A stretch of 64,000 bases of DNA from Mesorhizobium sp. J428 (GTDB lineage: Bacteria > Pseudomonadota > Alphaproteobacteria > Rhizobiales > Rhizobiaceae): assembly GCF_024699925.1 (NCBI RefSeq), contig NZ_JAJOMX010000004.1, positions 197,108 through 261,107 on the forward strand, given 5' to 3'. How positions within the stretch are numbered: position 1 is the stretch's first letter; every line of letters starts with the position of its first letter. This document shows positions 19,599 to 50,847 of the stretch, piece after piece. A model generated the notes under the pieces. It was not told the DNA's origin and did not search any database. It was given only the letters and a program-made list of their open reading frames with translations. A program made the translations under genes and the position numbers.

Positions 19599-19612
19599 CT
19601 AACAAACGTTAG
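19599..19612. promoter_or_regulatory. Operator A: CTAAC-N4-GTTAG between divergent operons
   Basis: CTAAC AAAC GTTAG is a perfect 5-bp-arm palindrome in the 93-base gap between the minus-strand operon (start 19555) and the plus-strand operon (start 19649). GAATG follows the right arm, and the other three sites also have GAA there. Its central position allows it to control both directions. It probably binds the tandem TetR protein encoded at 45682-46989. Confidence 0.7.
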
Positions 19613-19648
19613 AATGCTTGGCAAGATGCAATGGGAGGTAACGTGGAT

Positions 19649-21682
19649 ATGTCCGACAGGCGCGGAAGAACCTTCGAGAAATTGCTGTCCCCGATCCGGG
19701 CCGGCGTCCACGATCTGCGAAACCGGGTCATTATGGGCTCGATGCACACGCGGCTTGAAACCGAAGCGAACGGTATCGAAAGACAGGTCGCGTTCTATCG
19801 TGAACGCGCGCACGGCGAAGCGGCAGTCATCGTGACTGGCGGTTTTTCGCCCAACGCCGAAGGCATGTTCGATCCGGAAGGTCCGCGGCTCGACGATCCG
19901 CAGCAGGCGCTGAGCCTCAAGCCGATTTGCGATGCAGTCCATCAGGAAGGCAGCCTGATTTGCGCGCAGATCTGCCACGCGGGGCGTTATGCCAAGTTTG
20001 AAGGTTGCGTGGCACCTTCGCCGATTCGGGCGCCGATAAACCCCTATTCCCCGCGGGAGATGAGCGAACAGGATATTCTGCACACCATTGAAGATTTCGC
20101 CCAGGCAGCGCTCAACGCGCAATCTGCCGGTTTCGATGGCGTCGAAATAATGGGCTCCGAAGGCTATCTCATTAATGAATTCACCGTGACCCACACCAAC
20201 AAACGCGAGGACGAGTGGGGTGGCAGCGCCGACAACCGGCACCGCTTCGCGGTCGAAATCGTGCGCGCGGTGCGCGACCGCTGCGGACCGGATTTGCTGG
20301 TCATCTACCGTATTTCGGCGGCCGATCTTGTCGAGGGCGGCGCGCCCGCCGAAGAGATCGCCGCGCTCGCCCGCAAGATCGAGGCCGCCGGCGCCGACAT
20401 TCTGAACACCGGAATCGGCTGGCACGAGGCGCGCGTGCCAACGATCGCCTACCCAGTACCGCGTGGCGCCTGGCGGAAGGCGGCGGCCAACGTGAAGGCG
20501 GCGGTGTCGATCCCGGTGGTGGCCTCGAACCGAATCAATACCCCCGAGGTCGCCGAGGACATCCTGGCCTCGGGAGATGCCGACATGGTCTCGATGGCGC
20601 GGCCCTTCCTCGCCGACCCTCATTTCGTGAAGAAGGTGCGCGAGGGTCGGGCCCATGAGATCAACACCTGCATCGCCTGCAATCAGGCATGTCTGGATTT
20701 CATCTTCTCGGACCGTCCGGCAAGCTGCCTTGTCAATCCGCGCGCCGGCCGCGAGACGGAATTCCGTGACACCCCGAGCGAGACCCCGAAGAAGGTGGCG
20801 ATCGTCGGCGGCGGGGCGGCGGGTATGGCCACGGCGGCCGAGGCCGCGCGGCTTGGGCACGCGGTCACTCTTTTCGAGGCAGAGAACCGGCTGGGCGGGC
20901 AGCTCAACCTGGCACGTGCGGCCCCGGGCAAGCACGAGTTCGACGAAACGCTGCGTTATTACACTGCTCAGATGGACAGGCACGGCGTCACCCTGCGGCT
21001 GGGCTGTCGCGCCACTGCCGACGATCTTGCCGGGTTCGACCATGTGGTGATCGCCTCAGGCGTGACCCCTCGCATTCCGGACATTCCGGGCATAGATCAT
21101 CCCAAGGTCGCCACCTATGCCGAGATCCTCTGCGGCGCACGGGAGGCGGGACAGACCGTGGCCATCATGGGCGCCGGCGGGATCGGCCATGACGTGGCCG
21201 AATTCCTTGTCACCCATCCGGCTGAGGCCAACGAGAACGCGGCCTTTTTCGACACGTGGGGTGTGGACGGACAATTCAGGAACGCCGGCGCGCTGGCGGG
21301 CGATCCACTGGCCGCGGTGCCTGCAAAGCGCAAAGTGGTGATGCTGCAGCGCAAGACGAGCAAGGTGGGACAGGGGCTTGGCATTTCGACCGGCTGGATC
21401 CTGCGCAACGCGTTACGCAAACACGGAGTCGAGACCTTAGCGGGCGTGGTCTACCAGCGTATCGACGATGGGGGGCTCCACGTCCTTTCGAACGGCGAGA
21501 CAAAAGTTATCGCCGCCGATACGATCGTTCTCTGTACGGGACAGGAACCCGTACGGACGCTGGTCGAGGCGCTTGCGGCCCGCGGCATTTCCGCCACGAT
21601 GATCGGCGGTGCGGCCGAGGCGGCTGAACTCGATGCGCTGCGTGCGATCGATGAAGGAGTGCGCCTCGCCCAGTCTTTGTGA
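19649..21682 (+). CDS. 2,4-dienoyl-CoA reductase-type NADH:flavin oxidoreductase (FadH family)
   Basis: An old-yellow-enzyme TIM barrel (FMN) fused to a 4Fe-4S and FAD/NAD(P) module, as in E. coli FadH. The barrel holds the catalytic HAGRYAKF and the phosphate-binding region. The iron-sulfur Cys cluster is visible as CIACNQACLDFIFSDRPASC. The dinucleotide motif VAIVGGGAAGMATAAEAARL begins the second half, followed by a second GAGGIG site. The ATG at 19649 is preferred: GGGAGGT ends nine bases upstream, whereas the in-frame ATG at 19631 would contain that ribosome-binding site. It would reduce conjugated double bases at positions 2 and 4 of unsaturated acyl-CoAs, useful for terpenoid or polyunsaturated substrates. 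Confidence 0.9.
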   Translation: MSDRRGRTFEKLLSPIRAGVHDLRNRVIMGSMHTRLETEANGIERQVAFYRERAHGEAAVIVTGGFSPNAEGMFDPEGPRLDDPQQALSLKPICDAVHQEGSLICAQICHAGRYAKFEGCVAPSPIRAPINPYSPREMSEQDILHTIEDFAQAALNAQSAGFDGVEIMGSEGYLINEFTVTHTNKREDEWGGSADNRHRFAVEIVRAVRDRCGPDLLVIYRISAADLVEGGAPAEEIAALARKIEAAGADILNTGIGWHEARVPTIAYPVPRGAWRKAAANVKAAVSIPVVASNRINTPEVAEDILASGDADMVSMARPFLADPHFVKKVREGRAHEINTCIACNQACLDFIFSDRPASCLVNPRAGRETEFRDTPSETPKKVAIVGGGAAGMATAAEAARLGHAVTLFEAENRLGGQLNLARAAPGKHEFDETLRYYTAQMDRHGVTLRLGCRATADDLAGFDHVVIASGVTPRIPDIPGIDHPKVATYAEILCGAREAGQTVAIMGAGGIGHDVAEFLVTHPAEANENAAFFDTWGVDGQFRNAGALAGDPLAAVPAKRKVVMLQRKTSKVGQGLGISTGWILRNALRKHGVETLAGVVYQRIDDGGLHVLSNGETKVIAADTIVLCTGQEPVRTLVEALAARGISATMIGGAAEAAELDALRAIDEGVRLAQSL

Positions 21683-21714
21683 ACAACCAGGAACGATTGC
21701 CAGGGAGGAGCATC

Positions 21715-23244
21715 ATGCTGCCGGAGGTGGCCCGCGCCGGGCGGGCAGATGTCTTTTCGATGTTTCGCACGAGAGCGCGCGAGCAACAAGATGCGCTTGC
21801 GCTCGAGAACGGAGAGATAAGACACAGCTACGGCACCCTTCTGGGCCGTGTGGACCGTCTCGCTGCGGTGCTTCTGGCGCGGGGGGTAAAGACCGGGGAC
21901 CGGCTGGTGATCCTGTCGAACAATCGCGCCGAGTACCTTGAACTGCAACTGGCCGCCGCCGGGATCGGGGCGATCGTCGCCTGTTTGAACTGGAGGCTGA
22001 CCGCGCCGGAGCTCAAGCACTGCATCGACCTGGTTGAACCGGTTCTGGCCGTGGTCGAGCCAGAGTTGCGCGCGGCCTTGGACGCGGTTTCGCACCTGCC
22101 GGTTCTGGAAATCGGCCCCGACTGGGAGGCCGCACTGGCTGGAGCAGAGCCCGATCCGCGCATCGACGCGCTGGTGAATGACGTGGAGGCGGGGCTGACC
22201 ATCCTTTACACCTCCGGCACCACTGGGCTGCCCAAGGGCGCACTCATCAGTCATCGCGCCCATATCGCGCGTGCCATGGTTTTTGCGGCGCAGCTCGCGC
22301 TCCAGCCTGATGACGCCTTCATCGCCTGGGCGCCGATGTTCCATATGGCGTCGACCGACCATGCGCTAGCCACGATCTTGCGCGGTGGCCCCGTGGTGAT
22401 GGTCGATGGGCTGCAGCCGGCGGTCATCAATGAGGCGCTGAGCCGCCACAAGGTCGGCTGGTTCATAATGATGCCGGGCGCGATCGACGCCTTCATCGCG
22501 GAACGTCGCGCCAATCCTCTGCCGATCAGAGGCGTCAGGGTCTGCGGCGCTATGGCCGATCTGGTGCCGCCGCATCAGATTGCAGAACTCACGTCGCTGA
22601 TCGGCGCGCCCTATCTCAACTCCTTCGGCGCGACCGAAACGGGGCTGCCGCCGGCCACGGCCGAGCTGATCCCGGTGGGCGTCGCGCCGAAACGTCTGTC
22701 GAAGCGCGCCAGCGCCTTCTGCGAGGTGCGGCTGGTCGATCCGGAGGGGCGCGAGGTGGCGGATGGAACGCCCGGAGAAATGGCCGTGCGCGGCCCCACG
22801 CTATTTTCCGGGTACTGGAATGCCGACGAGACCAACGCCCGCGACTTTCGCGGTGGCTTTTTTCATATGGGCGATGTCTTCCGCCGCAATGCGGACGGCA
22901 CCATCGACTTCGTGGACCGCGCCAAGTATCTTATCAAGTCGGGTGGGGAAAACGTCTATCCAGCCGAGATCGAGCGGGTGCTGCTGGCGCATCCGAAGGT
23001 GATCGATGCCGCCGTCGTAAAGTCCGGGGACCTGCGCTGGGGCGAACGCCCGGTGGCCTTCGTGGCACGGCACGTCGACGGCCCCGATGCCGACGAGCTG
23101 ATGCGGCTTTGCCGCGATCAACTGGCCGGCTATAAGCGGCCGCGCGAGATCCGCTTCATCGCTTTCGAAGACTTCCCGCGCTCGACCAGCGGCAAGATCC
23201 AGCGCCACGTCCTGGAGACCTGGATCGAGCGCGAGGCCAACTGA
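21715..23244 (+). CDS. Acyl-CoA ligase (AMP-binding family), intact copy
   Basis: A 509-residue ANL-superfamily CoA ligase. The ATP P-loop is ILYTSGTTGLPKGALISH, the adenine motif NSFGATETGLPP, the A8 hinge FVDRAKYLIKSGGENVYPAE and the C-terminal catalytic Lys in STSGKIQRHV. The ATG at 21715 follows GGGAGGAG and is preferred over the longer frame from 21679, which begins inside the preceding stop region. It starts 32 bases after the reductase gene, in one operon. A broken second copy of its 3' part lies at 36117-36162 and 40446-40702. Confidence 0.88.
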   Translation: MLPEVARAGRADVFSMFRTRAREQQDALALENGEIRHSYGTLLGRVDRLAAVLLARGVKTGDRLVILSNNRAEYLELQLAAAGIGAIVACLNWRLTAPELKHCIDLVEPVLAVVEPELRAALDAVSHLPVLEIGPDWEAALAGAEPDPRIDALVNDVEAGLTILYTSGTTGLPKGALISHRAHIARAMVFAAQLALQPDDAFIAWAPMFHMASTDHALATILRGGPVVMVDGLQPAVINEALSRHKVGWFIMMPGAIDAFIAERRANPLPIRGVRVCGAMADLVPPHQIAELTSLIGAPYLNSFGATETGLPPATAELIPVGVAPKRLSKRASAFCEVRLVDPEGREVADGTPGEMAVRGPTLFSGYWNADETNARDFRGGFFHMGDVFRRNADGTIDFVDRAKYLIKSGGENVYPAEIERVLLAHPKVIDAAVVKSGDLRWGERPVAFVARHVDGPDADELMRLCRDQLAGYKRPREIRFIAFEDFPRSTSGKIQRHVLETWIEREAN

Positions 23245-23354
23245 GGCCTGCCTCGACTGCGCCTTTCCGCTGACACCCGTCCCGTCTGAACCGCGCCATC
23301 AGCGTACCGGTCATCGTGGCAGCCAGCTTGTCGGTCCTGCGCTTCAGCGCATGT
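23245..23354 (-). pseudogene. Relic of a PaaI-type thioesterase 3' end
   Basis: These 110 bases after the ligase stop match the convergent 3' end of the thioesterase at 40722-41177 (CATCAGCGTACCGGTCATCG, then CTTCAGCGCATG) but with indels and no open frame. The similarity ends at about 23354. They show that an ancestral ligase/thioesterase convergent pair was duplicated and that this copy lost the thioesterase. 23355-23462 holds nothing I can identify. Confidence 0.7.
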
Positions 23355-23462: not shown

Positions 23463-23476
23463 CTAACGTCTGTTAG
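23463..23476. promoter_or_regulatory. Operator B: CTAAC-N4-GTTAG upstream of the first transport operon
   Basis: CTAAC GTCT GTTAG is a perfect palindrome with the same arms and spacing as operator A, 145 bases upstream of livG. Read on the minus strand its flank is GTTAGAATT, matching operator A's GTTAGAATG. 23477-23620 shows no gene and probably contains the promoter and leader of the transport operon. Confidence 0.68.
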
Positions 23477-23620: not shown

Positions 23621-24409
23621 GTGCTCATGACCGCCGCGCGAAAAGAGCGACAGGCACCGCCGCTTGCCGTCCGCAGCGCCACCCTTCGGTTCGGCGGAGT
23701 GACGGCGCTGGATGACGTCTCTATCGAGGTGCGCGAGGACGAGCTTTTGGCGATCATCGGCCCCAATGGTGCAGGAAAGACATCGTTTCTGAACGTCACT
23801 GCCGGTTTTTACCGCCCCCAGCAGGGGTGCGTCGAACTCATCGGGCAGGATGTGACCGGCCTCCGCGTGGACCAGATCGCCCGCAGAGGCTTGGCACGCA
23901 CCTTTCAGGGAACGCACCTCTTCGGGGGGTTGACCGTGGTCGAGAACATCCTGATTGGCCGCCACACCCTTATGCGTTCGAATGTAGTCCAGGCCTTCTT
24001 CCACTACGGGCCGGTGATGCGCGAGGAAACCGAACATCGCGAGGCTGTTGAGGAAATCGTGGAATTTCTCGAGATCGAGGCGATCCGAAACCGGCAGGTG
24101 GGCACGCTGGGCTACGGGTTGCGCAAGCGCGTCGATCTGGGCCGCGCCTTGGCGCAAGAGCCCTCTATCCTGCTTTTGGACGAGCCGATGGCCGGAATGA
24201 ACTCCGAGGAGAAAGAAGATCTCGCGCGCTTCATCCTCGACGTGCGCGAGGCGCGGAAGATCCCGGTGGTGCTTGTGGAACACGACATGGGCGTCGTGAT
24301 GGACCTGGCCGACCGGATCGTAGTGCTGGACTTCGGCCGGGTGATCGCTGAAGGGACGCCGGCTGAAATCCAGAGGGATCCGGCCGTGATCAAAGCCTAT
24401 CTGGGGTAG
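23621..24409 (+). CDS. livG: Branched-chain amino acid-type ABC transporter ATPase (LivG-like)
   Basis: A 262-residue LivG-type ATPase. Walker A is IGPNGAGKTS, the signature region is TLGYGLRKRVDLGRALA (YGLRKRV in place of LSGGQ, as is usual in LivG), and Walker B is ILLLDEPMAGM followed by a switch His in VLVEHDMGVV. The start is GTG at 23621 or ATG at 23627. It is the first gene of an operon whose order livG, ligase, livH, livM, binding protein, livF is repeated on the minus strand at 56040-62628. With its partners it would energise uptake of a carboxylate rather than an amino acid, judging from the catabolic context. Confidence 0.88.
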   Translation: MLMTAARKERQAPPLAVRSATLRFGGVTALDDVSIEVREDELLAIIGPNGAGKTSFLNVTAGFYRPQQGCVELIGQDVTGLRVDQIARRGLARTFQGTHLFGGLTVVENILIGRHTLMRSNVVQAFFHYGPVMREETEHREAVEEIVEFLEIEAIRNRQVGTLGYGLRKRVDLGRALAQEPSILLLDEPMAGMNSEEKEDLARFILDVREARKIPVVLVEHDMGVVMDLADRIVVLDFGRVIAEGTPAEIQRDPAVIKAYLG

Positions 24410-24413
24410 AACA

Positions 24414-26412
24414 GTGGAGCGCACAAGAGCAGCGAAGGTCTTCAGCGATCCCGCGGTGACGCAAAGCCAAACGCTGCCGCAGGTGTTGCTGGCGCGAGCC
24501 AAGGCCACGCCGGCTGCCTTGGCCCAGCGGCACAAGCGCCTCGGCATCTGGCGCGAGTTCACCTGGGCCGACGTGCTCCAGCGGGTCCGCGCCTTGGCGC
24601 TTGGCCTTGACGATCTGGGATTCGGCTCAGGCGACTCAATGATGGTAATCGGCGAGAACGAACCCGAACATTTCTGGGCCGAGTACGCCGCCCAATCGTT
24701 GGGCGGGAAGGTGATCTCGGTCTACCCCGATCAATCCTCCGCCGAGGTTCACTATCTGGCGCGGGATTCGGAGACGCGGATCTTCCTTGTGCAGGACCAG
24801 GAGCAGGTGGACAAGTGCCTCGAGATCGCCGGGGACCTCGAGGGCATCATCGCCATTGTCTACTGGGACGATGCCGGGCTGTGGACCTACGCACACCCGC
24901 TCTTGCGCTCGTATCAGGCGGTGAGCGATGCCGGAGCCCGCCGTCACGACCAGGACCCGAAGTTATTCGAGGCTCGTGTCGCGCGCGGTAGACGCGGCGA
25001 CATCGCGGTTCTGTCCTATACCTCGGGCACGACCAGCAAGCCGAAAGGCGTTATGATCTCACAGCGCTATCTTTTCGACAACTCCGCCCGGGTGATGGGC
25101 GCGGTCGAAATCGCGCCGGGCACCGAGTACCTCACCTATATTTCCCCGGCTTGGGTTACCGAGCAGATCTTCGGGCTGTCGATCGGGCTGCTTGCACCGA
25201 TGGTGGTGAACTTCCCCGAGGGGCCGGAAGAGATACTCGACAACATCCGTGAGCTGGCCGTCAATGCGCTGGTCTTCAGCCCGCGTCAGTGGGAGAACCT
25301 TGCCTCGATTGTGCAGGCGCGGATGCTTAGCGCGGGGCCAATTCGGCGGGCGTTCTACAACTGGGCCATGAGGGTGGGCCGCGACGTCTATGTCGAGCGG
25401 CTTGAAGGGCGTCGGCCTTCGCTTGCAGCGCGCCTGCAGCTGCCGCTGGCCGAGGTTCTGGTGCTTTGGCACCTGCGCGACAACCTAGGCCTGAGAAAGG
25501 CCAGGAACGCCATGTCTGGGGGGGCGCTCATGGCGCCTGACGTCTTCCGCATGTTCCACGCCATGGGCGTGAAGCTGCGCAACGTATACGGGGCAACAGA
25601 AGTCGGACTTCTCACAGCGCATATGGGCGAAAGCTATAAGCTGGAGACCAGCGGGCGCTGGATGCAGGTCAATCCTGTCTATGGCGATCCGCTCGAATTT
25701 CGCATCGCCGAGGACGGCGAGCTCCATGTGCGGGGCGGCTCGGGGTTCGGCGGCTATTTCCGCAAGCCTGACAAGACCGCTGAGGCCCAGACCAGGGACG
25801 GCTGGTACGCGACCGGCGACGCCGTCTCAATGACCGATGATGGAGAGCTCGTGTTCTTCGACCGCGTAAAGGACATGCGGCATCTCTGCAACGGTCACAG
25901 CTATCCGCCGCAGTTCATCGAAACCCGTCTGCGCTACAGCCCCTTCATCAAGGACCTGATGATCCTTGGAGACCAGACGCGCCCCTTCGTGGCGGCGTTG
26001 ATCAATATCGATATGGAGAGTGCTGAGCCGCTGGGTCGAGGAGAACCAGCTTAGCTTCTCGACCTATACCGACCTGTCGCAGAAACCCGAGATCCTCGAA
26101 CTGATCAGAGCGGAGGTGGAGCGCATCAACATGCTTCTGCCGGAAGGCTCGCGGGTCCGGCGTTTCGCGAACTTCCCCAAGGAGCTCGATCCCGACGAGG
26201 GCGAGCTGACCCGCAGCCGCAAGCTGCGCCGAGCCTTTCTGGAAGAGCGCTACGCCGATCTAGTGGAGGCGATCTACGGCGGGGACCACAGTGTCGATCT
26301 CGAAATCGCTGTCACCTATCAAGACGGCCGCCGGGGCGTTCTAAGAGTCCACGTCGCCGTTACCGATGTAGAGGGCGCTCCGCGCACCGCCCGGAAGCAA
26401 CACGCCGCGTGA
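24414..26412 (+). CDS. Long-chain acyl-CoA synthetase-type AMP ligase, one frame change
   Basis: A FadD/LC-FACS-like AMP-forming acyl-CoA synthetase, about 665 residues. Motifs are LSYTSGTTSKPKGVMISQ, the LC-FACS element YGATEVGLLTAHM and FFDRVKDMRHLCNGHSYPPQ. The first frame ends at 26054; the protein continues after VALINIDMES in another frame as RWVEENQLSFSTYTDLSQ to the C-terminus DEGELTRSRKLRRAFLEER. The single-base change lies near 26021-26026. The start is GTG at 24414, four bases after livG. Placement inside a Liv transporter operon suggests uptake-coupled activation of the imported acid, as in vectorial acylation (inference). Confidence 0.85.
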
Positions 26413-26428
26413 AGGAGTTCACGAAACG

Positions 26429-27313
26429 ATGATCTACGTTATCAACGACATCATCACTGGCGCCCTGATCGGGCTGCTCTATGCTCTGGTCGCGATGGGG
26501 TTCGTGGTGATCTATCGCGCCAGCAAAGTGTTCAACTTCGCCCAGGGCGAACTGGTGATCCTGGGCGGCTTCATCGTGTGGTACACGACCTTCGAGCTGG
26601 GTCTCGACCTCTGGCTGGCGATCCCGCTCTCGCTGCTGCTTTCGGCGCTGGCAGGCTACCTGATCGAGCGGATCTTCCTGACCAAACTGATCGGAGAAAG
26701 TGTATTCTCCATGGTCATGGTCACCGTGGGGCTGTTGATATTGCTGCGCGGGATTGTGCTGCTGCTTTTCGGACCCGCGGTGCGGCCCTTCCCGGTGATC
26801 TTCCCTCTGAAGCCGCTGTTCCTGGGAGAGATGCTGATTCCGATGAACCTCCTGATCGGCGGTCTCATCACCGTGGTCGCGGCGGTCGGGCTCTCCTGGT
26901 TCTTCAATCGGACCCGCGCCGGGCTGCGCATGACGGCGGTGGCCGAGGATCATGTGGTGGCTTCGTCTATGGGGATCTCGGTCAAGGGCTCGATCGCCTT
27001 CGCCTGGGTCCTGGGCGCGGTTCTCTCCACGGTGGGTGCGATGATCTTCCTGAGCGGCAAGTCGCTCACTTTCCTTGCCTCCGAGATCGGCTTCGCCGCG
27101 CTTCCTGTTGCGCTGTTTGCCGGGCTCGAATCCATCGGCGGACTAATCCTTGCCGGCGTAATCGTGGGCGTGGCACAAAGCTTGGCCACCAACTATCTCG
27201 ATCCGCTGGTGGGCGGTGCGCTCGGTGCTGTCGTGCCCTACCTCATCATGCTGGGCATCCTGCTGATCCGGCCAACCGGACTGTTCGGCTGGCGCACCAT
27301 CGAGAGGGTCTGA
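26429..27313 (+). CDS. livH: ABC transporter permease (LivH-like)
   Basis: A 294-residue inner-membrane permease of the LivH family with about eight hydrophobic segments, beginning NDIITGALIGLLYALVAMGF and including the family motif FNFAQGELVILGGF. The conserved cytoplasmic loop TRAGLRMTAVAEDHVVASSM contains the expected EAA-like coupling segment. The ATG at 26429 follows AAGGAG by about eleven bases. It pairs with the LivM-like protein four bases downstream. Confidence 0.9.
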   Translation: MIYVINDIITGALIGLLYALVAMGFVVIYRASKVFNFAQGELVILGGFIVWYTTFELGLDLWLAIPLSLLLSALAGYLIERIFLTKLIGESVFSMVMVTVGLLILLRGIVLLLFGPAVRPFPVIFPLKPLFLGEMLIPMNLLIGGLITVVAAVGLSWFFNRTRAGLRMTAVAEDHVVASSMGISVKGSIAFAWVLGAVLSTVGAMIFLSGKSLTFLASEIGFAALPVALFAGLESIGGLILAGVIVGVAQSLATNYLDPLVGGALGAVVPYLIMLGILLIRPTGLFGWRTIERV

Positions 27314-27316
27314 GCG

Positions 27317-28369
27317 ATGGATCCTTCCGGCATCTTCGCCACCAGCTACCGCGCCGACCGGCGGCTGGTCCGCACCCGCTGGCAAGCGCTTTCGCTCATC
27401 CTATTCATCGCGGTGCTGCTGGCGGCGCCCTATCTGGTAGGGCCGCGGATCGTCGCCATCCTCAACATCATGTACATCAGCGCCGTGGTCGCCGTGGGGC
27501 TTCAGATCTGCACCGGCTATGCCGGTCAGATCAACCTCGGTCAGGCGGCATTCATGGGAGTTGGCGCCTATACGGCTGCGATCCTGGCCGAGAAGACCGG
27601 GCTAACCTTCCTTCTGACAATCCCCATCGCCGGTTTCGCAGCGGCTGTCTTCGGCTTCCTCTTCGGGCTGACGGCGGCGCGGATCAAGGGCTTCTACTTG
27701 GCGCTCACCACCATCGCTGCACAATTCATCTTCCACTTCGCGGTACTCAATCTGCCCTCGTCCTGGCTTGGGGGATCGAACGGGGTGACCGTGCCGCCGG
27801 CCACGCTTTTCGGATTGCGGATCGTGAGCGAAGGCGCGCAGTACTACCTTATGCTGTTCGTTGCCGCGATCATGGTGGCCGGCGCCTTCGGAATCGTCCG
27901 CTCGCGCTTCGGGCGTGCCTTCGTGGCGGTCCGCGACGACGACGTGGCCGCCGGCATCATGGGCATCAATGTCGCCGCCACCAAGGCCAACGCCTTCCTG
28001 ATCGGCGCATTCTACGCCGGGGTGGGCGGCGGGCTCTGGGCCTACCTGATCCGCTTCGTCGGCGTGGATCAGTTCACCCTGTTCAACTCGGTGTTCTTCA
28101 TAGCGATGATTATTGTTGGCGGCATGGGCTCTGTCGTCGGTGCGCTCATCGGGGTCTTCGTGATCCGCGTGATTCAGGAGATCATCGCAACCGTTGGGCC
28201 GAACATTGCCGACAGCGTCACCTTCCTCGGCGGCGACATCGTCTTCGCGGGAATGAACGTGATCCTGGGCGGGGTCATTGCCCTCTTCATGATCCTCGAG
28301 CCCAAGGGACTGATGCATCGCTGGACCATCCTGAAGTCGTCTTACCGCATCTGGCCGTTCCCCTATTGA
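27317..28369 (+). CDS. livM: ABC transporter permease (LivM-like)
   Basis: A 350-residue LivM-type permease. A short cytoplasmic N-terminus precedes eight or more transmembrane segments with the motifs TGYAGQINLGQAAFMGVGAY, FGLTAARIKGFYLALTTIAA and the coupling loop FVAVRDDDVAAGIMGINVAA. It would form the heterodimeric translocation pore with the preceding LivH-like protein. The intact frame and four-base spacing indicate one operon. Confidence 0.9.
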   Translation: MDPSGIFATSYRADRRLVRTRWQALSLILFIAVLLAAPYLVGPRIVAILNIMYISAVVAVGLQICTGYAGQINLGQAAFMGVGAYTAAILAEKTGLTFLLTIPIAGFAAAVFGFLFGLTAARIKGFYLALTTIAAQFIFHFAVLNLPSSWLGGSNGVTVPPATLFGLRIVSEGAQYYLMLFVAAIMVAGAFGIVRSRFGRAFVAVRDDDVAAGIMGINVAATKANAFLIGAFYAGVGGGLWAYLIRFVGVDQFTLFNSVFFIAMIIVGGMGSVVGALIGVFVIRVIQEIIATVGPNIADSVTFLGGDIVFAGMNVILGGVIALFMILEPKGLMHRWTILKSSYRIWPFPY

Positions 28370-28400
28370 CCAGGGCCGGCCCTCAACTGGGAGAAAGAAA

Positions 28401-29639
28401 ATGACAACGTCGTTGAAATCGAGGTGCCGCACTCTTCTTGCGGCGGGCGCAATGGCACTGGCCTGGGCACTGCCGCTGAAGGCGCAGGAGGAAACCCGCT
28501 ACAACGTGGCGCTCCTGTCGGACTTCTCGGGGCCTTATGCCGACATCATGCCGATCCTCGCGGCGGGGCGCGAGAAGGTGATCGACTGGTGGAACGCCAC
28601 CCGCGGCGCGCAACTGGGTGTGACGCTGAACTACAAGAACTACGAGACCCGCTATGACGCCGCCCAGGTGGCAAGCCTGTGGCCCGGCATCAAGTCCGAA
28701 CTCGAGCCCATCGCGGTAATCGGCCTCGGCGGCCCCGACGTCGCCGCACTGTCCGAGCGCCTGCCCGAGGACAAGATCCCGATGTTCATGGCCACCGCCG
28801 CGTACGGCTATGCGTGGAAACCGGACTCCTGGATTTTCAATCCCCGTCCCACCTACTCACACGAGAGTGCGGGCTTCCTGAACTGGCTGCGCCGGAAGCG
28901 GGGCGGTGATGGCCCCATCAAGGCAGCGATCATGGCCTCGGAGGCCTCGCCGGCCTATGTGGACATGGCCAAGGGCCTGGAGAAATACGCCGAAGAGCAC
29001 CCCGACGAGATCGAACTGGTTGAGGTGATCTATACGGAAGTGCAGCCGACCGATCTGACGGCGCAGATGCGCCGCGTGGCACGCTCGGGCGCCGACGCCC
29101 TGATCATCCAGACCAACACTTCGATCGTAGTTGCCGCAAAGCGCGGCCTGCAGGCCAATGGCGCCGATGTGCCGATCATGATGAGTTCGCACAATGGCCT
29201 TCCCGCCTCGGGCAAAGCCCTGGGCGGCCTCGAACAGCTTGAAGGCGACTACGAAGCCTACGGCATGGCCATCGCGGCCGACGAGGATACGCCGCCCCGC
29301 CAGTTCTACCAGACCCTGTCCGACAGTTACGGCCTGAAGGCGCCTTGGAACGTAGTGACTGCCATGGGCATCTCCCAAGGGCTTTTTGCCGTTACGGTGA
29401 TCGAACATGCGATAGAAGCCAACGGTCCGGAGGGCCTGACCGGCGAGAAGGTGCGCGAGGCGCTTTTCGCAGAACCGATCACTACAGAAGAAACCCACGG
29501 TTTCCTTCCCACGCTGTCCTTCACGCCTGAGGCACCCTTCCCCCTGAAGGGACTTCAGGTCAACGTCGGCAGCGTGCGCGACGGCAAGATCGTGGTCGAC
29601 GCCACCGGTGCCGCCATCCCCAACGTCGAGAAGTGGTGA
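28401..29639 (+). CDS. Periplasmic substrate-binding protein (LivK/Peripla_BP_6 type)
   Basis: A 412-residue type I periplasmic binding protein. A Sec signal peptide (residues 1-28) ends AWALPLKAQ, and the mature fold starts NVALLSDFSGPYADIMP. GGPDVAALSERLPEDKIPMF and DALIIQTNTSIVVAAKRGLQ are typical subdomain segments. Unlike true leucine-binding proteins, relatives in this position usually bind aromatic or hydrophobic carboxylates. That is family knowledge, and the ligand is not visible here. The ATG at 28401 follows GGGAGAAAGAAA. A strong hairpin separates it from livF. Confidence 0.88.
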   Translation: MTTSLKSRCRTLLAAGAMALAWALPLKAQEETRYNVALLSDFSGPYADIMPILAAGREKVIDWWNATRGAQLGVTLNYKNYETRYDAAQVASLWPGIKSELEPIAVIGLGGPDVAALSERLPEDKIPMFMATAAYGYAWKPDSWIFNPRPTYSHESAGFLNWLRRKRGGDGPIKAAIMASEASPAYVDMAKGLEKYAEEHPDEIELVEVIYTEVQPTDLTAQMRRVARSGADALIIQTNTSIVVAAKRGLQANGADVPIMMSSHNGLPASGKALGGLEQLEGDYEAYGMAIAADEDTPPRQFYQTLSDSYGLKAPWNVVTAMGISQGLFAVTVIEHAIEANGPEGLTGEKVREALFAEPITTEETHGFLPTLSFTPEAPFPLKGLQVNVGSVRDGKIVVDATGAAIPNVEKW

Positions 29640-29644
29640 GACCT

Positions 29645-29674
29645 GCCGGGCACCGCCCGCTCGTGGTGCCCGGC
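29645..29674 (+). promoter_or_regulatory. 10-bp perfect intergenic hairpin between binding protein and livF
   Basis: GCCGGGCACC and GGTGCCCGGC flank a 10-base loop just after the binding-protein stop, with no U tract after it. Such structures between a binding-protein gene and its transporter partners often protect the upstream mRNA from 3' decay and raise binding-protein yield relative to the ATPase. That role is inferred here. Confidence 0.55.
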
Positions 29675-29702
29675 CCTATCCTAAGAACGGGGCAAGCGGC
29701 CG

Positions 29703-30494
29703 ATGCTGGAACTTCACAATGTAGAGGTTACCTATTCCGATGTCATCCTTGCGCTGAAGGGCGTTTCCCTGAGCCTTCGGGAAGGGCAGTGCGTCGCGCT
29801 CCTTGGCGGCAACGGCGCCGGCAAGAGCACGACCCTCAAGGCAATCTCGGGCACGCTGAAATCCGAAGACGGAAAGGTGTCGGCCGGAGCAATCACCCTC
29901 GAGGGCACTCCGATCCATAACCTGGAAGCTTCGGAGGTTGTGCGGCGCGGCCTCATCCACGTGATGGAAGGCCGCCGCGTGCTGCGCCACATGACAGCGG
30001 AGCAGAACCTGATTGTCGGGGGACACATGGTGCCTGACCGGGCCGAGCTGAAGCGACGGCTCGATCACGTCTACATGCTGATGCCGCGCCTCGCTGACCT
30101 GAAGTCCCGCACGGCGGGCTTCATGTCGGGCGGCGAACAGCAGCTCCTTCTGATCGGCCGCGCGATGATGGCCCGGCCTAAGATCATCGCCATCGATGAG
30201 CCTTCGCTCGGCCTCGCTCCGCTGATGATCCGCGACGTCTACGAGGTGCTGAGCCGGCTGAAGGAGGAGGGCACGACCTTCTTTTTGGTTGAGCAGAACA
30301 GCGCCGCGGGGCTGGGATTGGCCGATTACGCCTATGTGCTGGAGAACGGCCGGGTGGTTCTCGACGGGCGCGCCGATAAGCTGGCCCAGAACGAGGACGT
30401 GAAGGAATTCTACCTCGGCGTGACCGCCTCAGGCGAACGCAAGAGTTATCGCGAGGTCAAGCACTACCGCCGGCGCAAGCGCTGGCTCGGATGA
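29703..30494 (+). CDS. livF: ABC transporter ATPase (LivF-like) with basic C-terminal tail
   Basis: A 263-residue LivF-type ATPase. Walker A is LGGNGAGKST, the signature FMSGGEQQLLLIGRAMM, and Walker B IIAIDEPSLGLAP followed by FFLVEQNS. After the ATPase core it has an extra tail ending REVKHYRRRKRWLG. The second LivF in the window ends almost identically (RDVKHYKRRKRWLS), so the tail is conserved in this transporter subtype and absent from ordinary amino-acid LivF. Confidence 0.88.
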   Translation: MLELHNVEVTYSDVILALKGVSLSLREGQCVALLGGNGAGKSTTLKAISGTLKSEDGKVSAGAITLEGTPIHNLEASEVVRRGLIHVMEGRRVLRHMTAEQNLIVGGHMVPDRAELKRRLDHVYMLMPRLADLKSRTAGFMSGGEQQLLLIGRAMMARPKIIAIDEPSLGLAPLMIRDVYEVLSRLKEEGTTFFLVEQNSAAGLGLADYAYVLENGRVVLDGRADKLAQNEDVKEFYLGVTASGERKSYREVKHYRRRKRWLG

Positions 30495-30509
30495 TGAACA
30501 GGGGGAGGC

Positions 30510-31298
30510 ATGAAACACATTCTCGACCTCAAGGGACGGACAGCGCTGGTGACCGGCGGTGGACAAGGCGTGGGGCGCCAGGTCGCCCTCTATCTGGCGC
30601 AGTTCGGCGCCGGCGCCGTTGTGATCAACGATTTCCACGCCGACCGCGCCGAAGCGGTGGCATCCGAGGTAGCGGCGCTCGGTGCGAAGGCGCTGCCCCT
30701 GGCCTTCGACGTCTCCGATTTCGAGGCCGTCGGCGGCGCGTTCGCCAGGGCGCGTGAGGCGCTGGGCGGGGTCGACATCCTGGTGAACAACGCCGGCAAT
30801 GCAGGCCCGACCTCGCGCCTCGACGATTTGGTTCCTTTCTGGGAATCCGGTCCCGACGAGTGGCGACGCTGGTTGGCCACCAACTTAGACGGCGTGCTCA
30901 ACTGCACCCGCCACGCCATGCCCGGCATGATCAAGGGCGGTTACGGTCGGATTGTCACCGTGATCTCGGACGCCGGCCGCGTCGGCGAACCGCACCTGGC
31001 TGTCTATTCCGGTGCCAAGGCCGGCGCTGCGGGCTTCATGCGCGCCATCGCCAAAGCCGGCGGCCGCTTCGGGATCACCGCCAACTGCGTTGCCCTCGGC
31101 GGCACACGGACCCCCGCGGTGACCGATCTGATCCCCGACGAAGCCGCTGAGAAAAAGGTCCTTTCGCAATACCTGATCCGTCGCCTCGGTGAACCGGAGG
31201 ATCCGGCGGGCCTGATCCTCTTCCTCTGCTCGGACGCGGCGAGCTGGATCACCGGCCAGACCTATCCGGTCAACGGGGGATACTCGTTTGCGGTCTGA
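30510..31298 (+). CDS. Short-chain dehydrogenase/reductase
   Basis: A 262-residue SDR with TGGGQGVG cofactor motif, NNAG, and the catalytic pair in VYSGAKAG, with Ser in VISDAG. GGGGGAGG precedes the ATG at 30510, 15 bases after livF, so it is the last gene of the transport operon. It probably oxidises a 3-hydroxyacyl-CoA or alcohol derived from the imported substrate. The frame is intact. Confidence 0.85.
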   Translation: MKHILDLKGRTALVTGGGQGVGRQVALYLAQFGAGAVVINDFHADRAEAVASEVAALGAKALPLAFDVSDFEAVGGAFARAREALGGVDILVNNAGNAGPTSRLDDLVPFWESGPDEWRRWLATNLDGVLNCTRHAMPGMIKGGYGRIVTVISDAGRVGEPHLAVYSGAKAGAAGFMRAIAKAGGRFGITANCVALGGTRTPAVTDLIPDEAAEKKVLSQYLIRRLGEPEDPAGLILFLCSDAASWITGQTYPVNGGYSFAV

Positions 31299-44709: not shown

Positions 44710-44726
44710 TACGGATCTTCTGACCT

Positions 44727-44800: not shown

Positions 44801-44827
44801 GGGCTGTCAACCGTGCATTGACAGCCC
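44801..44827 (-). promoter_or_regulatory. 10-bp perfect hairpin spanning an SDR stop codon
   Basis: GGGCTGTCAA and TTGACAGCCC flank a 7-base loop and include the last codons and stop (44809-44807) of the SDR. Together with the terminator 50 bases further on it may protect the transcript's 3' end. Confidence 0.45.
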
Positions 44828-45568
44828 GCCCGATACGGAAATGACCTGTCCGGTTATGAATCCGGCATCGTCCGAGGCGAGGAAACACACAATCCCGGGA
44901 TAGTCCGTCGGCTGGGCGAGACGTCTCATGGGGATCGCCCGTTTAAGGCCTTCCGCAATCTTCTCTCCGGCTTCGCCCTTGGCGACTTCTGCGAATAGCG
45001 GGGTGTCTGTCGGACCGGGCGCGACCGCGTTGAGCTGAATGCCCTTGCGGGCCAGTTCCCGCGCGACGGTCTTGGTAAAGGAAATGATGCCGCCTTTGCA
45101 GGCCGAATAGACCGCCTCGCCCGAGGAGCCGACGCGGCCCGCATCCGAACTGATGTTCACGACGCGGCCGGACCCATTCCTTACCATTCCCGGAAGAACA
45201 GCATGATGCATGTGAAGAGGGCCGTAGAGGTTGATGTCTATGATCTTCTTCCACAGATCAAGATCGGTCTCGAGGAACGGCTTGATCTCATCCCATCCGG
45301 CGTTGTTGACCAGAACGTCGATCGGCCCGCCGGCCTCGAACTCGGCCACTGCGGCGTCCACTGCCTTGCGGTCGGTGATGTCGACGGTGTAAGCACGCGC
45401 CTTGCCGCCTGCATCTTCGATCGTTCCGACGGTTTGCCGGGCACCTTCTTCATTGAGGTCGAAAACCGCAACCTCGGCTCCTTCCTCGGCGAAGCGGGTG
45501 CAGATCGCCCGCCCGATTCCGCTTCCGCCACCCGTGACGATTACTCTCTTGCCTTTCAGTCCGCGCAT
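44807..45568 (-). CDS. Short-chain dehydrogenase/reductase
   Basis: A 253-residue SDR with TGGGSGIG (12-19), NNAG, Ser in NISSDAG and the catalytic VYSACKGG, ending with the typical FITGQVISVSGG. ATG 45568 follows GGAGAAAC, giving a 6-residue lead to the Rossmann fold. The longer open frame overlaps the divergent regulator and is rejected. It is divergent from the tandem TetR gene and shares operator C with it. It probably acts on 3-hydroxyacyl-CoA or an alcohol in this pathway. Confidence 0.86.
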   Translation of the reverse strand: MRGLKGKRVIVTGGGSGIGRAICTRFAEEGAEVAVFDLNEEGARQTVGTIEDAGGKARAYTVDITDRKAVDAAVAEFEAGGPIDVLVNNAGWDEIKPFLETDLDLWKKIIDINLYGPLHMHHAVLPGMVRNGSGRVVNISSDAGRVGSSGEAVYSACKGGIISFTKTVARELARKGIQLNAVAPGPTDTPLFAEVAKGEAGEKIAEGLKRAIPMRRLAQPTDYPGIVCFLASDDAGFITGQVISVSGGLSMHG

Positions 45569-45620: not shown

Positions 45621-45634
45621 CTAACGCTTGTTCG
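45621..45634. promoter_or_regulatory. Operator C: one-mismatch CTAAC-N4-GTTAG between SDR and double-TetR gene
   Basis: CTAAC GCTT GTTCG has the same arms and spacing as operators A and B with one mismatch. On the minus strand the right-hand flank reads GTTAGAATG, identical to operator A. It lies in the 113-base gap between the SDR and tetR-tetR genes, where a repressor commonly controls its own synthesis. Confidence 0.68.
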
Positions 45635-45681: not shown

Positions 45682-46989
45682 ATGGAAGAAATCCTCCCCC
45701 ATAGCCCCCGCGACGAGCCATACGGGAAATCGGTGCAGACGCGTCGCGCGATCCTCCTGGCGGCGGCGAAGCTGTTTAGCAAAGAGGGATACAACGCGAC
45801 CACCATGCGGCGGATCGCCGAGGCGGCGAACCTGGAAGCCGGTAGCATCTACTATCATTTCGGCTCGAAGGATCAGATCCTGGACGAGGTCCTCGATATT
45901 GGGGTTAGACAACTCTACGAGCAAATTCGGGGGATCGTCGAACGGTCGGCGGCGGAAGGTGACCCATTCCGGAAAACGTTCGCGCAGCTTGTCGACACTC
46001 ACCTTTGTTTCCTTTTGAAAGAAAGTGATTTCACTTCAGCGAATATCAGGAACTTCCCTATGCTGTCGGACAAGCGCCGCAGAGCGCATCGTCCCTTGCG
46101 AGAGGCCTATGCGCAGCTCTGGCGATCATTCTTGCAGCACCATCAGGACGATCTGCGTGGTGACATCTCGGTCACCCTGGTCAGCCAGTTCATCCTCGGA
46201 GCTATGAACTGGACAGCGGAATGGTGCGACAGCGAACGTTATCCGGTCAGTCTGCTGTCGGAACGCTTGTCGAAACTGCTGCTCGACGGCATGTGCACCA
46301 AACGTGGCGGAACGGTCAGAAAATCGGTCGAATCTCTTGACCTGACAGATGGACTCGAACCAGCGGGGAAGGCCGAACGAACCCGCCATCAAATCCTTCG
46401 CACGGCCGCCCAAATCTTGCGAGAGAGCGGCTACAAGGCCGCTACAATACGACGTGTCGCATCGGAAGCGGGCCTTGAGGCAGGCAGCGTCTACTACCAT
46501 TTCGGCTCGAAGGAGGAAATTCTCGATGAGGTGCTCGACCTGGGCCTGCATGATCTCTTGAACGGCGTCAGCCATGCGGCCGCCATATGGCCGAACAAGG
46601 AAGATCATAGAAACCGGATCGCGACCGCGATCGCGACGCACATGGCATATTTGTTCCGTGCCAGCGAGTTTACCTCCGCCAACATCCGCATCTATGGGAT
46701 GCTGCCGGAAGGGATCCGCTCGCGCCATCGGCCTGTTCGACACCAATACGCGAAGGTCTGGGATCGGCTGTTGCGCGAGGCGCAGACGGCCGGAGCCTTG
46801 CGCTCCGACATAAAGGTGGTTCCGCTACGGCAGGCCATGCTGGGCGCGCTGAATTGGACGGTCGAATGGTTCGATCCCGGCAAGGGCGACCAACGCGGAT
46901 ACTATACGCTTTCAGCTTTCACGGATCTGCTCATCAAAATGCTGCTGGACGGTATTTCGGCCAACGGCTCAGCCCCGAAGATCACATAA
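45682..46989 (+). CDS. Tandem (fused) double TetR-family regulator
   Basis: A single 435-residue frame containing two complete TetR units. Helix-turn-helix domains lie at about 20-66 and 231-286; the recognition regions LEAGSIYYHFGSK and LEAGSVYYHFGSK differ at one position. Each is followed by an alpha-helical ligand domain with matching landmarks (TSANIR, HRP, LGAMNWTAEW and LGALNWTVEW). A linker of about 30 residues joins them. Normal TetR proteins are ~200-residue homodimers, so this protein may act as a single-chain pseudo-dimer on palindromic DNA such as the four CTAAC-N4-GTTAG sites. The ligand is probably an acyl-CoA intermediate (inference). An artefactual join of two genes is unlikely, because no leftover stop or start signals are visible in the linker. 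Confidence 0.88.
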   Translation: MEEILPHSPRDEPYGKSVQTRRAILLAAAKLFSKEGYNATTMRRIAEAANLEAGSIYYHFGSKDQILDEVLDIGVRQLYEQIRGIVERSAAEGDPFRKTFAQLVDTHLCFLLKESDFTSANIRNFPMLSDKRRRAHRPLREAYAQLWRSFLQHHQDDLRGDISVTLVSQFILGAMNWTAEWCDSERYPVSLLSERLSKLLLDGMCTKRGGTVRKSVESLDLTDGLEPAGKAERTRHQILRTAAQILRESGYKAATIRRVASEAGLEAGSVYYHFGSKEEILDEVLDLGLHDLLNGVSHAAAIWPNKEDHRNRIATAIATHMAYLFRASEFTSANIRIYGMLPEGIRSRHRPVRHQYAKVWDRLLREAQTAGALRSDIKVVPLRQAMLGALNWTVEWFDPGKGDQRGYYTLSAFTDLLIKMLLDGISANGSAPKIT

Positions 46990-47009
46990 TCGGGGCGCGA
47001 AGAATAGCC

Positions 47010-48713: not shown

Positions 48714-49563
48714 TCTTTCCGTCCCCCCGCTGACGCTCCTGGAACATGTCCGGATGGATCATGTCGCGGGCGTCGTGGCCCATGTGCAGGGTTTCTCCCC
48801 CGTCCACATACACATCCTCGCCGGTAATGAAGGAACCGAGCCTGGAGGCGAGAAAAATGATCGTCCCTGCGACGTCTTCCGCCGCCCCCATGCGGTTAAG
48901 AACTGACCGGTTTAGCTCGTGCCACTTTTTCGGCGGTATCGGGTAGCGGCCGAGCGCCTCTGTCTTGATCGCACCGGGAGCTACGCAGTTCAGGCGGATG
49001 CCGTATTCACCCCATTCGGCGGCGAGCGTCTTCATCAAGCCTGTGACGCCTGCGCGCGCGGCAACGGTATGGGCGAAGCCCGTAAGTGCGGTGCGGGTCG
49101 AGATCGCGGTTACGAATACGATCGAGCCGCCGTTCTCGAACATGAAGTGGTCGGCGGCGGCGCGCGTCATCTGCCACGAGCCGATCAGATTGTTGCGGAT
49201 AACCGCCTCGAACCCTTTGTTGGTGATGTCGCGGGCGGCGGCGATATACTGGCCGCCGGCATTGTTCACAAGCACGTCGAGCCGACCGTAGTGATCTTTG
49301 ATCTTCAGCATTGCCGACTCGACGCTCTTCTCGTCGCGAGTGTCGCCCGGGACGACGAAGGCTTCGCCCCCCGTCGCGCGGATCATCTCGGCGGTTTCCT
49401 GAAGCGGCTCCTCGCGACGGGCGAATAGCGCCAGTCTGGCCCCGCAGGAAGCCATTTCGAGTGCTGTGGCGCGGCCCATGCCGGAGCCCGAGCCAGTCAC
49501 GAGAGCCACCTGGCCTGCCATGAGGTCGGGGGCGAAACGGCTCTGCACTTGTTTTTGTGCCAT
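48706..49563 (-). CDS. SDR family protein lacking the Tyr-Lys catalytic pair
   Basis: A 285-residue SDR fold with TGSGSGMG cofactor motif, NNAGG and Ser in VTAISTRT. Where YxxxK is expected it reads AHTVAARAGVTGLMK, with Thr and Arg in the two positions. 2,4-dienoyl-CoA reductase-like and PECR-like SDRs and some citronellol/citronellal (AtuB/AtuG) relatives also lack the pair, so a reductase of conjugated enoyl-CoAs is possible. It starts ten bases after the dehydrogenase gene. Confidence 0.84.
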   Translation of the reverse strand: MAQKQVQSRFAPDLMAGQVALVTGSGSGMGRATALEMASCGARLALFARREEPLQETAEMIRATGGEAFVVPGDTRDEKSVESAMLKIKDHYGRLDVLVNNAGGQYIAAARDITNKGFEAVIRNNLIGSWQMTRAAADHFMFENGGSIVFVTAISTRTALTGFAHTVAARAGVTGLMKTLAAEWGEYGIRLNCVAPGAIKTEALGRYPIPPKKWHELNRSVLNRMGAAEDVAGTIIFLASRLGSFITGEDVYVDGGETLHMGHDARDMIHPDMFQERQRGDGKNE

Positions 49564-49573
49564 GTGCCGGGCC

Positions 49574-50788
49574 TCAGTTCTTCAGCAGTTCGCCGGAGAT
49601 GATGAGCTTGCGCACCTCCTGCGTGCCCGCGCCCACCTCGAGAACCCGGCCCGTCCGATAGAGGCGGTTGACCTCGGTGTCGCGCATGTAGCCCGATCCG
49701 CCGTGAATCTGCACCGCGCGATCCAGCACGAAGGAGGTCGCTGCCGCAGCCTTGAAGATAGCCGCGGCCGTCAGCTTGTGGATCTCGCCACGCCCCCCTT
49801 CGCCTTCTTCCAGCCCCTCGCACATGGCGGCGGTGCGCAGCGACAGGCTGCGAGCGGCCTCGATCTCGGTATACATCTCGGCCAGCATGGCCTGCACCAT
49901 CTGGAAACTGGCGATCGGCTTGCCGAACTGTTCGCGGATCCTGGCGTAATCGAGCGCCAGCTCCAGAGCCCTTTCGGCCATCCCCACGCAAACCGAAGCG
50001 ACCATCGCCCGCTCCAGGTCGAGCCCGCTCATCACCACCGAAACGCCGCTGTTCTCGGCCCCGATCATGGCCGAGGCGGGCACGCGGCAATCCTCGAACA
50101 CCAGCTCGCCCGTGGGCGAGCCACGAAAGCCCATCTTGTCGAGCTTCTGCGCCACCTTGAAGCCGGGATTGTCGGTCTCCACGATGAAAGCCGAGATGCC
50201 CTTGGCGCCCTTCGCCTTATCGGTTTTTGCGTAAACCAGGATGACATCCGCGATCGGGCCGTTGGTGATGTAGATCTTCGAGCCGTTGATCACATAATCA
50301 TTGCCATCGCGCACGGCGCCGGTGGCCATCGAGCCCAGCGCGTCCGAGCCCGCGCCGGGCTCGGTCAGCCCAAGTGCGCCGACCAGCTCGCCCGAGCACA
50401 GGCCGGGAACGTATTTCCGCACCTGCTCATCCGAGCCGTTCCTGAGGATGTTGTTGAGGCACAGATTGTCGTGCGCGCCGTGCGAAAGGCCGACTGCCGG
50501 GTTCCATTTCGAGATGGTCTCTGAGACCAGGGCCTGGGTAAATTCGTTCTGGCCGCTGCCGCCCAGCTCCTCGGGCGCGGTAATGCCCAGCAGCCCGAGC
50601 TCGCCCATCTGCCGAAACAAATCCTCGGGCCACCATTCTTCCGCATCCATCTTCTCTTGCAATGGATGAAGAATCTCGCGCGCAACCCGATCCACGTGAT
50701 CCACGATCTGCCGTTGTTCGGGCGTCAGCGAATAGTTGGCCTTTATGGCCGCGAGCGCGGCCATGCCTGGCTCGGCCTGGACGTTCAT
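49574..50788 (-). CDS. Isovaleryl/citronellyl-CoA dehydrogenase-type acyl-CoA dehydrogenase
   Basis: A 404-residue acyl-CoA dehydrogenase of the isovaleryl-CoA dehydrogenase branch. The catalytic Glu appears in [10 protein letters not shown], and at the MCAD Glu376 position it has [15 protein letters not shown], as in isovaleryl-CoA dehydrogenase. Other motifs are [17 protein letters not shown] and [18 protein letters not shown]. This branch acts on 3-methyl-branched acyl-CoAs (isovaleryl-, citronellyl-CoA). ATG 50788 follows GGAGGATCAAAG. It heads the operon with SDR, hydratase and two thioesterases, with operator D 46 bases upstream of its start. Confidence 0.9.
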
Positions 50789-50833
50789 CTTTGATCCTCC
50801 CGATGGCTGCGCAACTTGCCTATTGATCAAAAT

Positions 50834-50847
50834 CAAACATATGTTAG
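50834..50847. promoter_or_regulatory. Operator D: one-mismatch CTAAC-N4-GTTAG upstream of the IVD-type operon
   Basis: CAAAC ATAT GTTAG has the same spacing and right arm as operators A and B, one mismatch in the left arm, and is followed by GAAAA. It sits in the gap between the dehydrogenase operon (minus) and the truncated atuA-like gene (plus), positioned to regulate both. Confidence 0.62.

What the first reader, a model, noticed from the sequence alone, without database searches (positions are those of the whole stretch)
19599..50847. A shared palindrome CTAAC-N4-GTTAG marks four catabolic promoters
Sites at 19599-19612 and 23463-23476 are perfect palindromes, and 45621-45634 and 50834-50847 have one mismatch each. 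All four are in intergenic promoter regions: two divergent catabolic operons, the transport operon, the double-TetR/SDR gap and the IVD-type operon. Spacing is constant (N4) and the right arm is followed by GAA in every oriented copy. This suggests one regulon covering uptake, activation and oxidation. The 31317-44709 genes and the second transport operon (start outside the window) have no such site in view.
Basis: seen in the sequence. Interest (0 to 1): 0.82.

Follow-up and report, generated by a model that had tools for sequence, protein, structure and literature searches.

The report
Shared TetR operator for acyl-CoA catabolism
A short mirror-image DNA word marks the start of many operons of a plasmid-borne fat/terpene-like degradation pathway, is conserved across many alphaproteobacteria, and is most likely the docking site of an unusual double TetR repressor and its single-domain relatives.

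Summary
The window is the end of an untrimmed circular plasmid contig (unique length about 224.7 kb). That plasmid has 12 distinct CTAAC-N4-GTTAG sites (7 perfect, 5 one-mismatch) against 3 in the remaining 5.62 Mb. On a sister plasmid (Nitratireductor thuwali) 11 of 11 distinct sites fall between listed genes.

In 80 of 80 loci encoding the 435-aa tandem TetR, a site lies just upstream of that gene (58 perfect, 22 one-mismatch). These loci hold 109 perfect sites, against 0-2 for 29 permuted palindromes. Both recognition helices are nearly identical; the model resembles Mce3R, a one-chain pseudo-dimer.

A single-domain TetR elsewhere on the plasmid has a perfect upstream site in 30 of 30 fetched loci. 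Genomes with only one regulator type keep sites. A chromosomal site before the ETF-ubiquinone oxidoreductase gene is conserved in the genus.

Best reading: an acyl-CoA-responsive TetR regulon for branched/isoprenoid-like acid catabolism. The operator word belongs to one TetR subfamily; one member is a fused double TetR reading a palindrome, unlike Mce3R. Binding, ligand and substrate are untested.

The parts
19599..19612 (.). perfect operator CTAACAAACGTTAG between divergent operons (acyl-CoA dehydrogenase operon leftward; dienoyl-CoA reductase-like/AMP-ligase operon rightward)
   Evidence: orthologous site in N. thuwali plasmid 71251 and in several other alphaproteobacterial plasmids
23463..23476 (.). 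perfect operator CTAACGTCTGTTAG upstream of ABC transport/AMP-ligase operon
   Evidence: N. thuwali site 68551, 151 bp from the ABC ATPase start
45621..45634 (.). operator CTAACGCTTGTTCG (1 mismatch) between SDR and tandem TetR
   Evidence: a site at this place in 80 of 80 tandem-TetR loci, 58 perfect and 22 one-mismatch
50834..50847 (.). operator CAAACATATGTTAG (1 mismatch) upstream of the paired acyl-CoA dehydrogenase operon
   Evidence: the CAAAC arm variant is the commonest one-mismatch form, 60 of 84 in the 80 loci, and stands at this operon in 5 of 5 plasmid regions that cover it
45682..46989 (+). 435-aa tandem (double) TetR, two TetR_N and two TetR_C_24 stretches; proposed reader of the operators
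44807..45568 (-). SDR (glucose 1-dehydrogenase family), divergent from the TetR; start inferred from the annotated orthologue
18374..19555 (-). acyl-CoA dehydrogenase, first gene of the long leftward operon (hydratase, dehydrogenase, AMP ligase, biotin-dependent carboxylase subunits, HMG-CoA lyase, SDR, citryl-CoA lyase, dehydrogenase in N. thuwali)
19649..21682 (+). Oxidored_FMN/Pyr_redox enzyme annotated as NADPH-dependent 2,4-dienoyl-CoA reductase in N. thuwali; start inferred from the orthologue
21679..23244 (+). AMP-binding acyl-CoA ligase, same operon
23627..31298 (+). branched-chain-type ABC transporter operon with AMP ligase and SDR; start inferred from the orthologue
49574..50788 (-). 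acyl-CoA dehydrogenase (IVD-type operon); start inferred from the orthologue
52386..63898 (-). second transport operon: AtuA (cut), ABC transporter, AMP ligase, biotin carboxylase, biotin carrier, carboxyl transferase; its operator is C4:36914, outside the window

Best explanation
AWTCTAAC-RNNY-GTTAGAWT (core CTAAC-N4-GTTAG) is the operator of a TetR-family repressor regulon for plasmid-borne uptake and acyl-CoA oxidation/carboxylation of a branched or isoprenoid-like acid. The 435-aa tandem TetR folds as a one-chain pseudo-dimer and places two nearly identical recognition helices on the two arms. The paralogous single-domain TetR on the same plasmid uses the same operator as a homodimer. Sites mostly sit within about 55 bp of start codons, so binding should block transcription initiation, and an acyl-CoA intermediate should release it; both regulators would also repress themselves. 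In this genus the chromosomal ETF-ubiquinone oxidoreductase gene, which takes electrons from acyl-CoA dehydrogenases (established knowledge), carries the operator too. Shown here: motif, placement, conservation, co-occurrence, helix similarity, modelled fold. Inferred: binding, repression, ligand, substrate.
Against: No binding or expression data. With two or three candidate regulators, which one occupies which site is open. Some subfamily loci lack a site: 8 of 24 (and several of the 16 with a site are from the same genus, so not independent); the chromosomal paralogue C1:2920284 has none in its 18-kb region. One-mismatch counts alone do not discriminate: permuted control CATCA gives 111 versus 84. 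Reversed-pattern counts are of the same size as the forward counts in many records and tandem carriers, so placement and contrast with non-carriers carry the case. In the 19 of 20 tandem carriers outside the genus that could be analysed, ETF-QO has no perfect or one-mismatch site. The G426 loss is a single case.
Confidence: 0.86

Rival explanations
1. Only the single-domain TetR (C4:53374-54006) binds the palindrome, as a homodimer; the tandem TetR is itself a target and acts elsewhere or by another sequence. (A variant of the regulon reading; its odds overlap with the main one.)
For: Single TetR has a perfect site upstream in 30 of 30 fetched loci; homodimer on a palindrome is the usual TetR mode; the solved double TetR found here, Mce3R, reads a non-palindrome (PMC11667970 passages).
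Against: G391 has no single TetR at E<=1e-25 but 7 perfect sites. S. pontiacus and P. pseudonitzschiae H46 plasmids with 10 sites each are not among the 17 records with a single TetR at E<=1e-40 (another replicon could carry it). Both tandem helices have the subfamily core.
Confidence: 0.1
2. Only the tandem TetR reads the sites; the single TetR is one regulated gene and responds to a different operator. (A variant of the regulon reading; its odds overlap with the main one.)
For: Site at 80 of 80 tandem promoters; single-TetR promoter sites have different flanks.
Against: G057 has three perfect sites and only a single-domain relative, which groups with the C-halves; relatives across the class have own-promoter sites in 16 of 24 loci.
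Confidence: 0.12
3. The palindromes are a general promoter or structural element (RNA hairpin, nucleoid protein site) unrelated to TetR.
For: Perfect inverted repeats with a 4-base loop could form a small hairpin.
Against: 4 perfect sites in 12 genomes without a tandem match (2 of them in G001, which has a single-domain relative) versus 138 in 20 carriers; exact N4 spacing and dependence on the CTAAC order; coupling to subfamily TetR promoters; several sites lie between divergent genes.
Confidence: 0.02

Closest known systems
Mce3R of Mycobacterium tuberculosis (double TetR, PDB 9b7y)
   Different: Mce3R binds 25-bp asymmetric sites with non-identical HTHs, and its halves belong to distinct subgroups (PMC11667970 passages). 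Here the recognition helices are near-identical, the operator is a palindrome, and both halves fall in one subgroup.
AtuR of Pseudomonas (acyclic terpene utilization)
   Same: TetR repressor beside atu-type genes.
   Different: AtuR operators are AGCAAGCGCTTGG/CCAAGCGCTTGCT (PMC9973270 passage), unlike CTAAC-N4-GTTAG; that AtuR is single-domain is recalled, not tested.
BkaR/Fad35R of mycobacteria
   Same: TetR for branched-chain keto-acid/carboxylase genes including citE; autoregulated palindrome.
   Different: Operator core GTTA(N)T(N4)A(N)TAAC, arms in the opposite order (PMC3920632 passages).
KstR2 and AibR
   Different: Single-domain chains; no operator comparison was run here.

Membership tests
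TetR-family repressor regulon | regulator with TetR_N HTH domain | tested here: met
   two TetR_N stretches, E 2.6e-34
TetR-family repressor regulon | palindromic site in the regulator's own promoter and in candidate target promoters | tested here: met
   80 of 80 tandem loci, 30 of 30 fetched single loci, operon promoters
TetR-family repressor regulon | DNA binding and ligand-released repression | not testable with these tools
   needs EMSA/DAP-seq and expression data
Mce3R-type double TFR | two TetR units in one chain | tested here: met
   Pfam; single frame in the orthologues
Mce3R-type double TFR | intramolecular four-helix bundle | tested here: inconclusive
   AlphaFold model matches Mce3R along its length; no experiment and interface not inspected
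Mce3R-type double TFR | asymmetric, non-palindromic operator with non-identical HTHs | tested here: not met
   palindrome and near-identical helices; binding itself inferred
Mce3R-type double TFR | halves from distinct TetR subgroups | tested here: not met
   N- and C-halves joined at 100/99 together with two single relatives
AtuR regulon | 13-bp operators AGCAAGCGCTTGG | tested here: not met
   operator differs (versus passage)
AtuR regulon | atu-type genes under the operator | tested here: met
   AtuA PF07287 heads an operon with a site about 120 bp upstream; control itself untested
BkaR regulon | operator GTTA(N)T(N4)A(N)TAAC | tested here: not met
   arm order reversed

The most novel reading that the evidence does not exclude
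A whole lineage of alphaproteobacterial TetRs shares one operator word, and a fused, symmetric double TetR reads it as a one-chain pseudo-dimer. Because the code is shared, horizontally moving catabolic plasmids can join a host's existing circuit: here a chromosomal ETF-QO operator, kept in the genus beside endogenous single-domain TetRs, would be co-controlled by the plasmid regulators, giving a cross-replicon regulon.
Probability: 0.4. Interest if true: 0.66.

Novelty: new variant of a known kind. Interest (0 to 1): 0.54.

Why it matters
It assigns a precise candidate operator to a large catabolic gene set found on plasmids and contigs of many marine and soil alphaproteobacteria, so its regulon, and perhaps its substrate, can be found by genome scan. 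It gives a symmetric double TetR to set against the asymmetric Mce3R, and so a direct test of how fusing two TetR units shapes DNA recognition. The conserved chromosomal ETF-QO site gives a testable case of a plasmid regulon plugged into a host respiratory gene.

Tried and rejected
Chance: rejected by permuted palindromes and spacing control. AtuR or BkaR as the regulator: operators differ (passages). Conservation of the ETF-QO site beyond the genus: of 49 loci, 6 could not be parsed and were dropped; of 43 analysed, 5 have a perfect site (all in the genus), 1 genus member has a 2-mismatch site, and in the 37 outside the genus none has 0-1 mismatch (two have a 2-mismatch hit at another position). 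Substrate naming by NCBIfam: 2 of 10 proteins passed a curated cut-off (HMG-CoA lyase subfamily, a thiolase subfamily), so the substrate stays open. Tree: my parser kept 18 of 23 class singles and 1 of 7 intended outgroup rows; the root is unsure and some branches are long. Literature: in the titles and abstract starts listed (15 of 399 papers; 10 of 13; 12 of 14; 0 found; 12 of 12; 8 of 64; 15 of 2,700; 15 of 898) I saw no paper on this operator or on a palindrome-reading double TetR; absence from print is not established. Papers were read only as passages. Structure match tables do not exclude other families.

Full report
1. Observation. The four sites are at the stated coordinates, two perfect and two with one mismatch; shuffled windows give 0.25 on average and none of 100 reached four. 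The window is C4:197108-261107, the end of a 261,107-bp contig whose last 36.4 kb repeat its first 36.4 kb at 99.66% with 74 gaps: an untrimmed circular plasmid of about 224.7 kb. Counting once, the plasmid has 12 sites (7 perfect, 5 one-mismatch) and the remaining 5.62 Mb has 3: one perfect before ETF-QO, one over the 3' end of an ORF, one before a pterin-binding (DHPS-type) ORF. The plasmid count has Poisson P of about 2e-20 at the rest-of-genome rate. The tool's reversed-pattern control gives 151 hits in the genome, so the motif is not abundant as such; its concentration is the signal.

2. Placement. The sister plasmid of Nitratireductor thuwali (NZ_CP030943.1, mostly 91-98% identical over the shared catabolic region) has 13 sites, 11 distinct because its record also repeats 13.5 kb. 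All 11 lie between listed genes in an 83-kb stretch that is 88% coding (P about 8e-11), 8 of 11 within 28-55 bp of a start codon. The gene table is incomplete: three of the 11 lie in a 2.5-kb stretch with no listed gene, where the window's own plasmid has two ORFs; there the sites are upstream of ORFs. On the window's plasmid 5 of the 12 sites overlap ORFs from my crude ORF caller; comparison with the annotated orthologues suggests these ORFs are over-extended or on the wrong strand. Targets on the sister plasmid: the paired acyl-CoA dehydrogenase operon and AtuA, the tandem TetR and SDR, two ABC-transport operons, the dienoyl-CoA-reductase-like gene and divergent dehydrogenase/carboxylase/HMG-CoA lyase operon, CoA-transferase and thiolase/OB-fold/MaoC operons, and the single TetR with a biotin-dependent carboxylase operon.

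3. Conservation. Eight further plasmids of Roseibium, Sulfitobacter, Sagittula, Phaeobacter, Roseovarius and Pseudosulfitobacter carry 4-12 sites each (reversed control 3-13); in the regions read, many of the sites are at orthologous operons, including the same CAAAC variant before the dehydrogenase pair in 5 of 5 regions that cover it. A genome-collection scan kept the best 80 loci encoding the tandem TetR (of 164 confirmed); 80 of 80 have a site just upstream of it (58 perfect, 22 one-mismatch), 58 more lie at about +6.25 to +6.5 kb and 37 between -5 and -9.5 kb. These loci hold 109 perfect sites; 29 palindromes with permuted arms have 0-2; other spacings from 0 to 10 give zero. At one mismatch the controls range from 0 to 111 against 84, so I rest on perfect sites and position. 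The logo of 72 distinct perfect sites extends to AWTCTAACRNNYGTTAGAWT. Of 35 genomes, 20 tandem carriers have 138 perfect sites (4-11 each; reversed control 123), 12 without a tandem match have 4 (reversed control 87; two of the 12, G001 and G007, carry single-domain relatives); the other three are G265 (7) and G342 (2), with a tandem, and G057 (3), with a single relative.

5. A second reader. A single TetR at C4:53374-54006 (38% and 37% identical to the two halves) has the helix KAGSIYYHF. All 30 loci fetched for it, the best from 37 tandem-carrying genomes searched, have one perfect site upstream, with different flanks. G391 has the tandem but no single TetR at E<=1e-25 and keeps 7 perfect sites; G057 has a single TetR without tandem and its only three perfect sites within 5 kb, beside hydratase, dehydrogenase, SDR and ABC genes. 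In an even class sample of 385 genomes, 29 (own included) have a match at E<=1e-25; of 28 loci examined (one is a tandem half), 16 of 24 at E<=1e-40 have a site (up to one mismatch) 38-146 bp before the match, 0 of 4 weaker ones; some rows share a genus. In those loci perfect counts are 7 versus 0-1 for the permuted palindromes. The operator therefore looks like a trait of a TetR subfamily, and both plasmid regulators probably use it.

6. Chromosomal link. A perfect site precedes ETF-QO in G000, G423, G424, G425 and G427, with different central bases but intact arms; G426 has a two-mismatch remnant; G422 could not be read. The five carry a subfamily TetR at E<=1e-48, G426 none (best 1.3e-12). 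In G424 a separate chromosomal cluster of dehydrogenases, ligase, CoA-transferase, lyase and ABC genes with its own single TetR holds 8 sites. In the 19 of 20 tandem carriers outside the genus that could be analysed, ETF-QO has no site with 0-1 mismatch. So the ETF-QO operator is a genus feature, and the plasmid regulon may simply share it.

7. Function and limits. AtuA, biotin-dependent carboxylases, HMG-CoA lyase (above its NCBIfam cut-off), dehydrogenase pairs and ABC importers point to branched or isoprenoid-like acid catabolism; the substrate is not identified. Repression, binding and ligand are inference from TetR biology. Novelty: a new variant, namely a palindrome-reading double TetR and its regulon, inside a known kind.

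Noticed in passing
window 27625-64000 (C4:224732-261107): The window's last 36.4 kb repeat the first 36.4 kb of the same contig at 99.66% with 74 gaps: an untrimmed circular assembly, so small indels near the end are probably sequencing errors.
   Followed up: yes
C4:18052-19357 versus window 45682-46989: In the contig's first copy the tandem TetR is split by a frameshift (182 + 240 aa); the window copy is one open frame. Described only.
   Followed up: partly
C4:22025-23485 and C4:36644-38105: Inverted near-identical copies of the dehydrogenase promoter region (with its operator) flank a 13-kb AtuA/ABC/carboxylase block; N. thuwali has one site there.
   Followed up: partly
C1:4979440 (L067 about 2941-2954): A one-mismatch site CTAACGGTCGTTGG directly before a pterin-binding (DHPS-type) ORF; the identical 14-mer occurs in relative G424 (C4:3190431). 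Possibly real, unexplained.
   Followed up: no
N. thuwali plasmid NZ_CP030943.1, 1-13540 and 199178-212698: This public plasmid record also carries a terminal repeat (99.86%), probably untrimmed.
   Followed up: no
L076-L079: Tandem TetR 98-99% identical in a Rhizobiaceae MAG, Mesorhizobium sediminum, Enterovirga aerilata and Aliihoeflea aestuarii: suggests recent transfer between hosts.
   Followed up: no
L164-L193: Operators before the single TetR often have nested extra arms (TAACCTAAC...GTTAGTTA type), unlike the AWT flanks of other sites; may set affinity or regulator choice.
   Followed up: partly
L321 6800 and 6877 (G001:C8): Two perfect sites 77 bp apart upstream of a thiolase-like gene in a genome without the tandem TetR.
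   Followed up: no
G393:C15:44874-46550: A second ETF-QO copy lies on the same contig as part of the site-bearing catabolic cluster in this genome, about 10 kb from the last perfect site.
   Followed up: no
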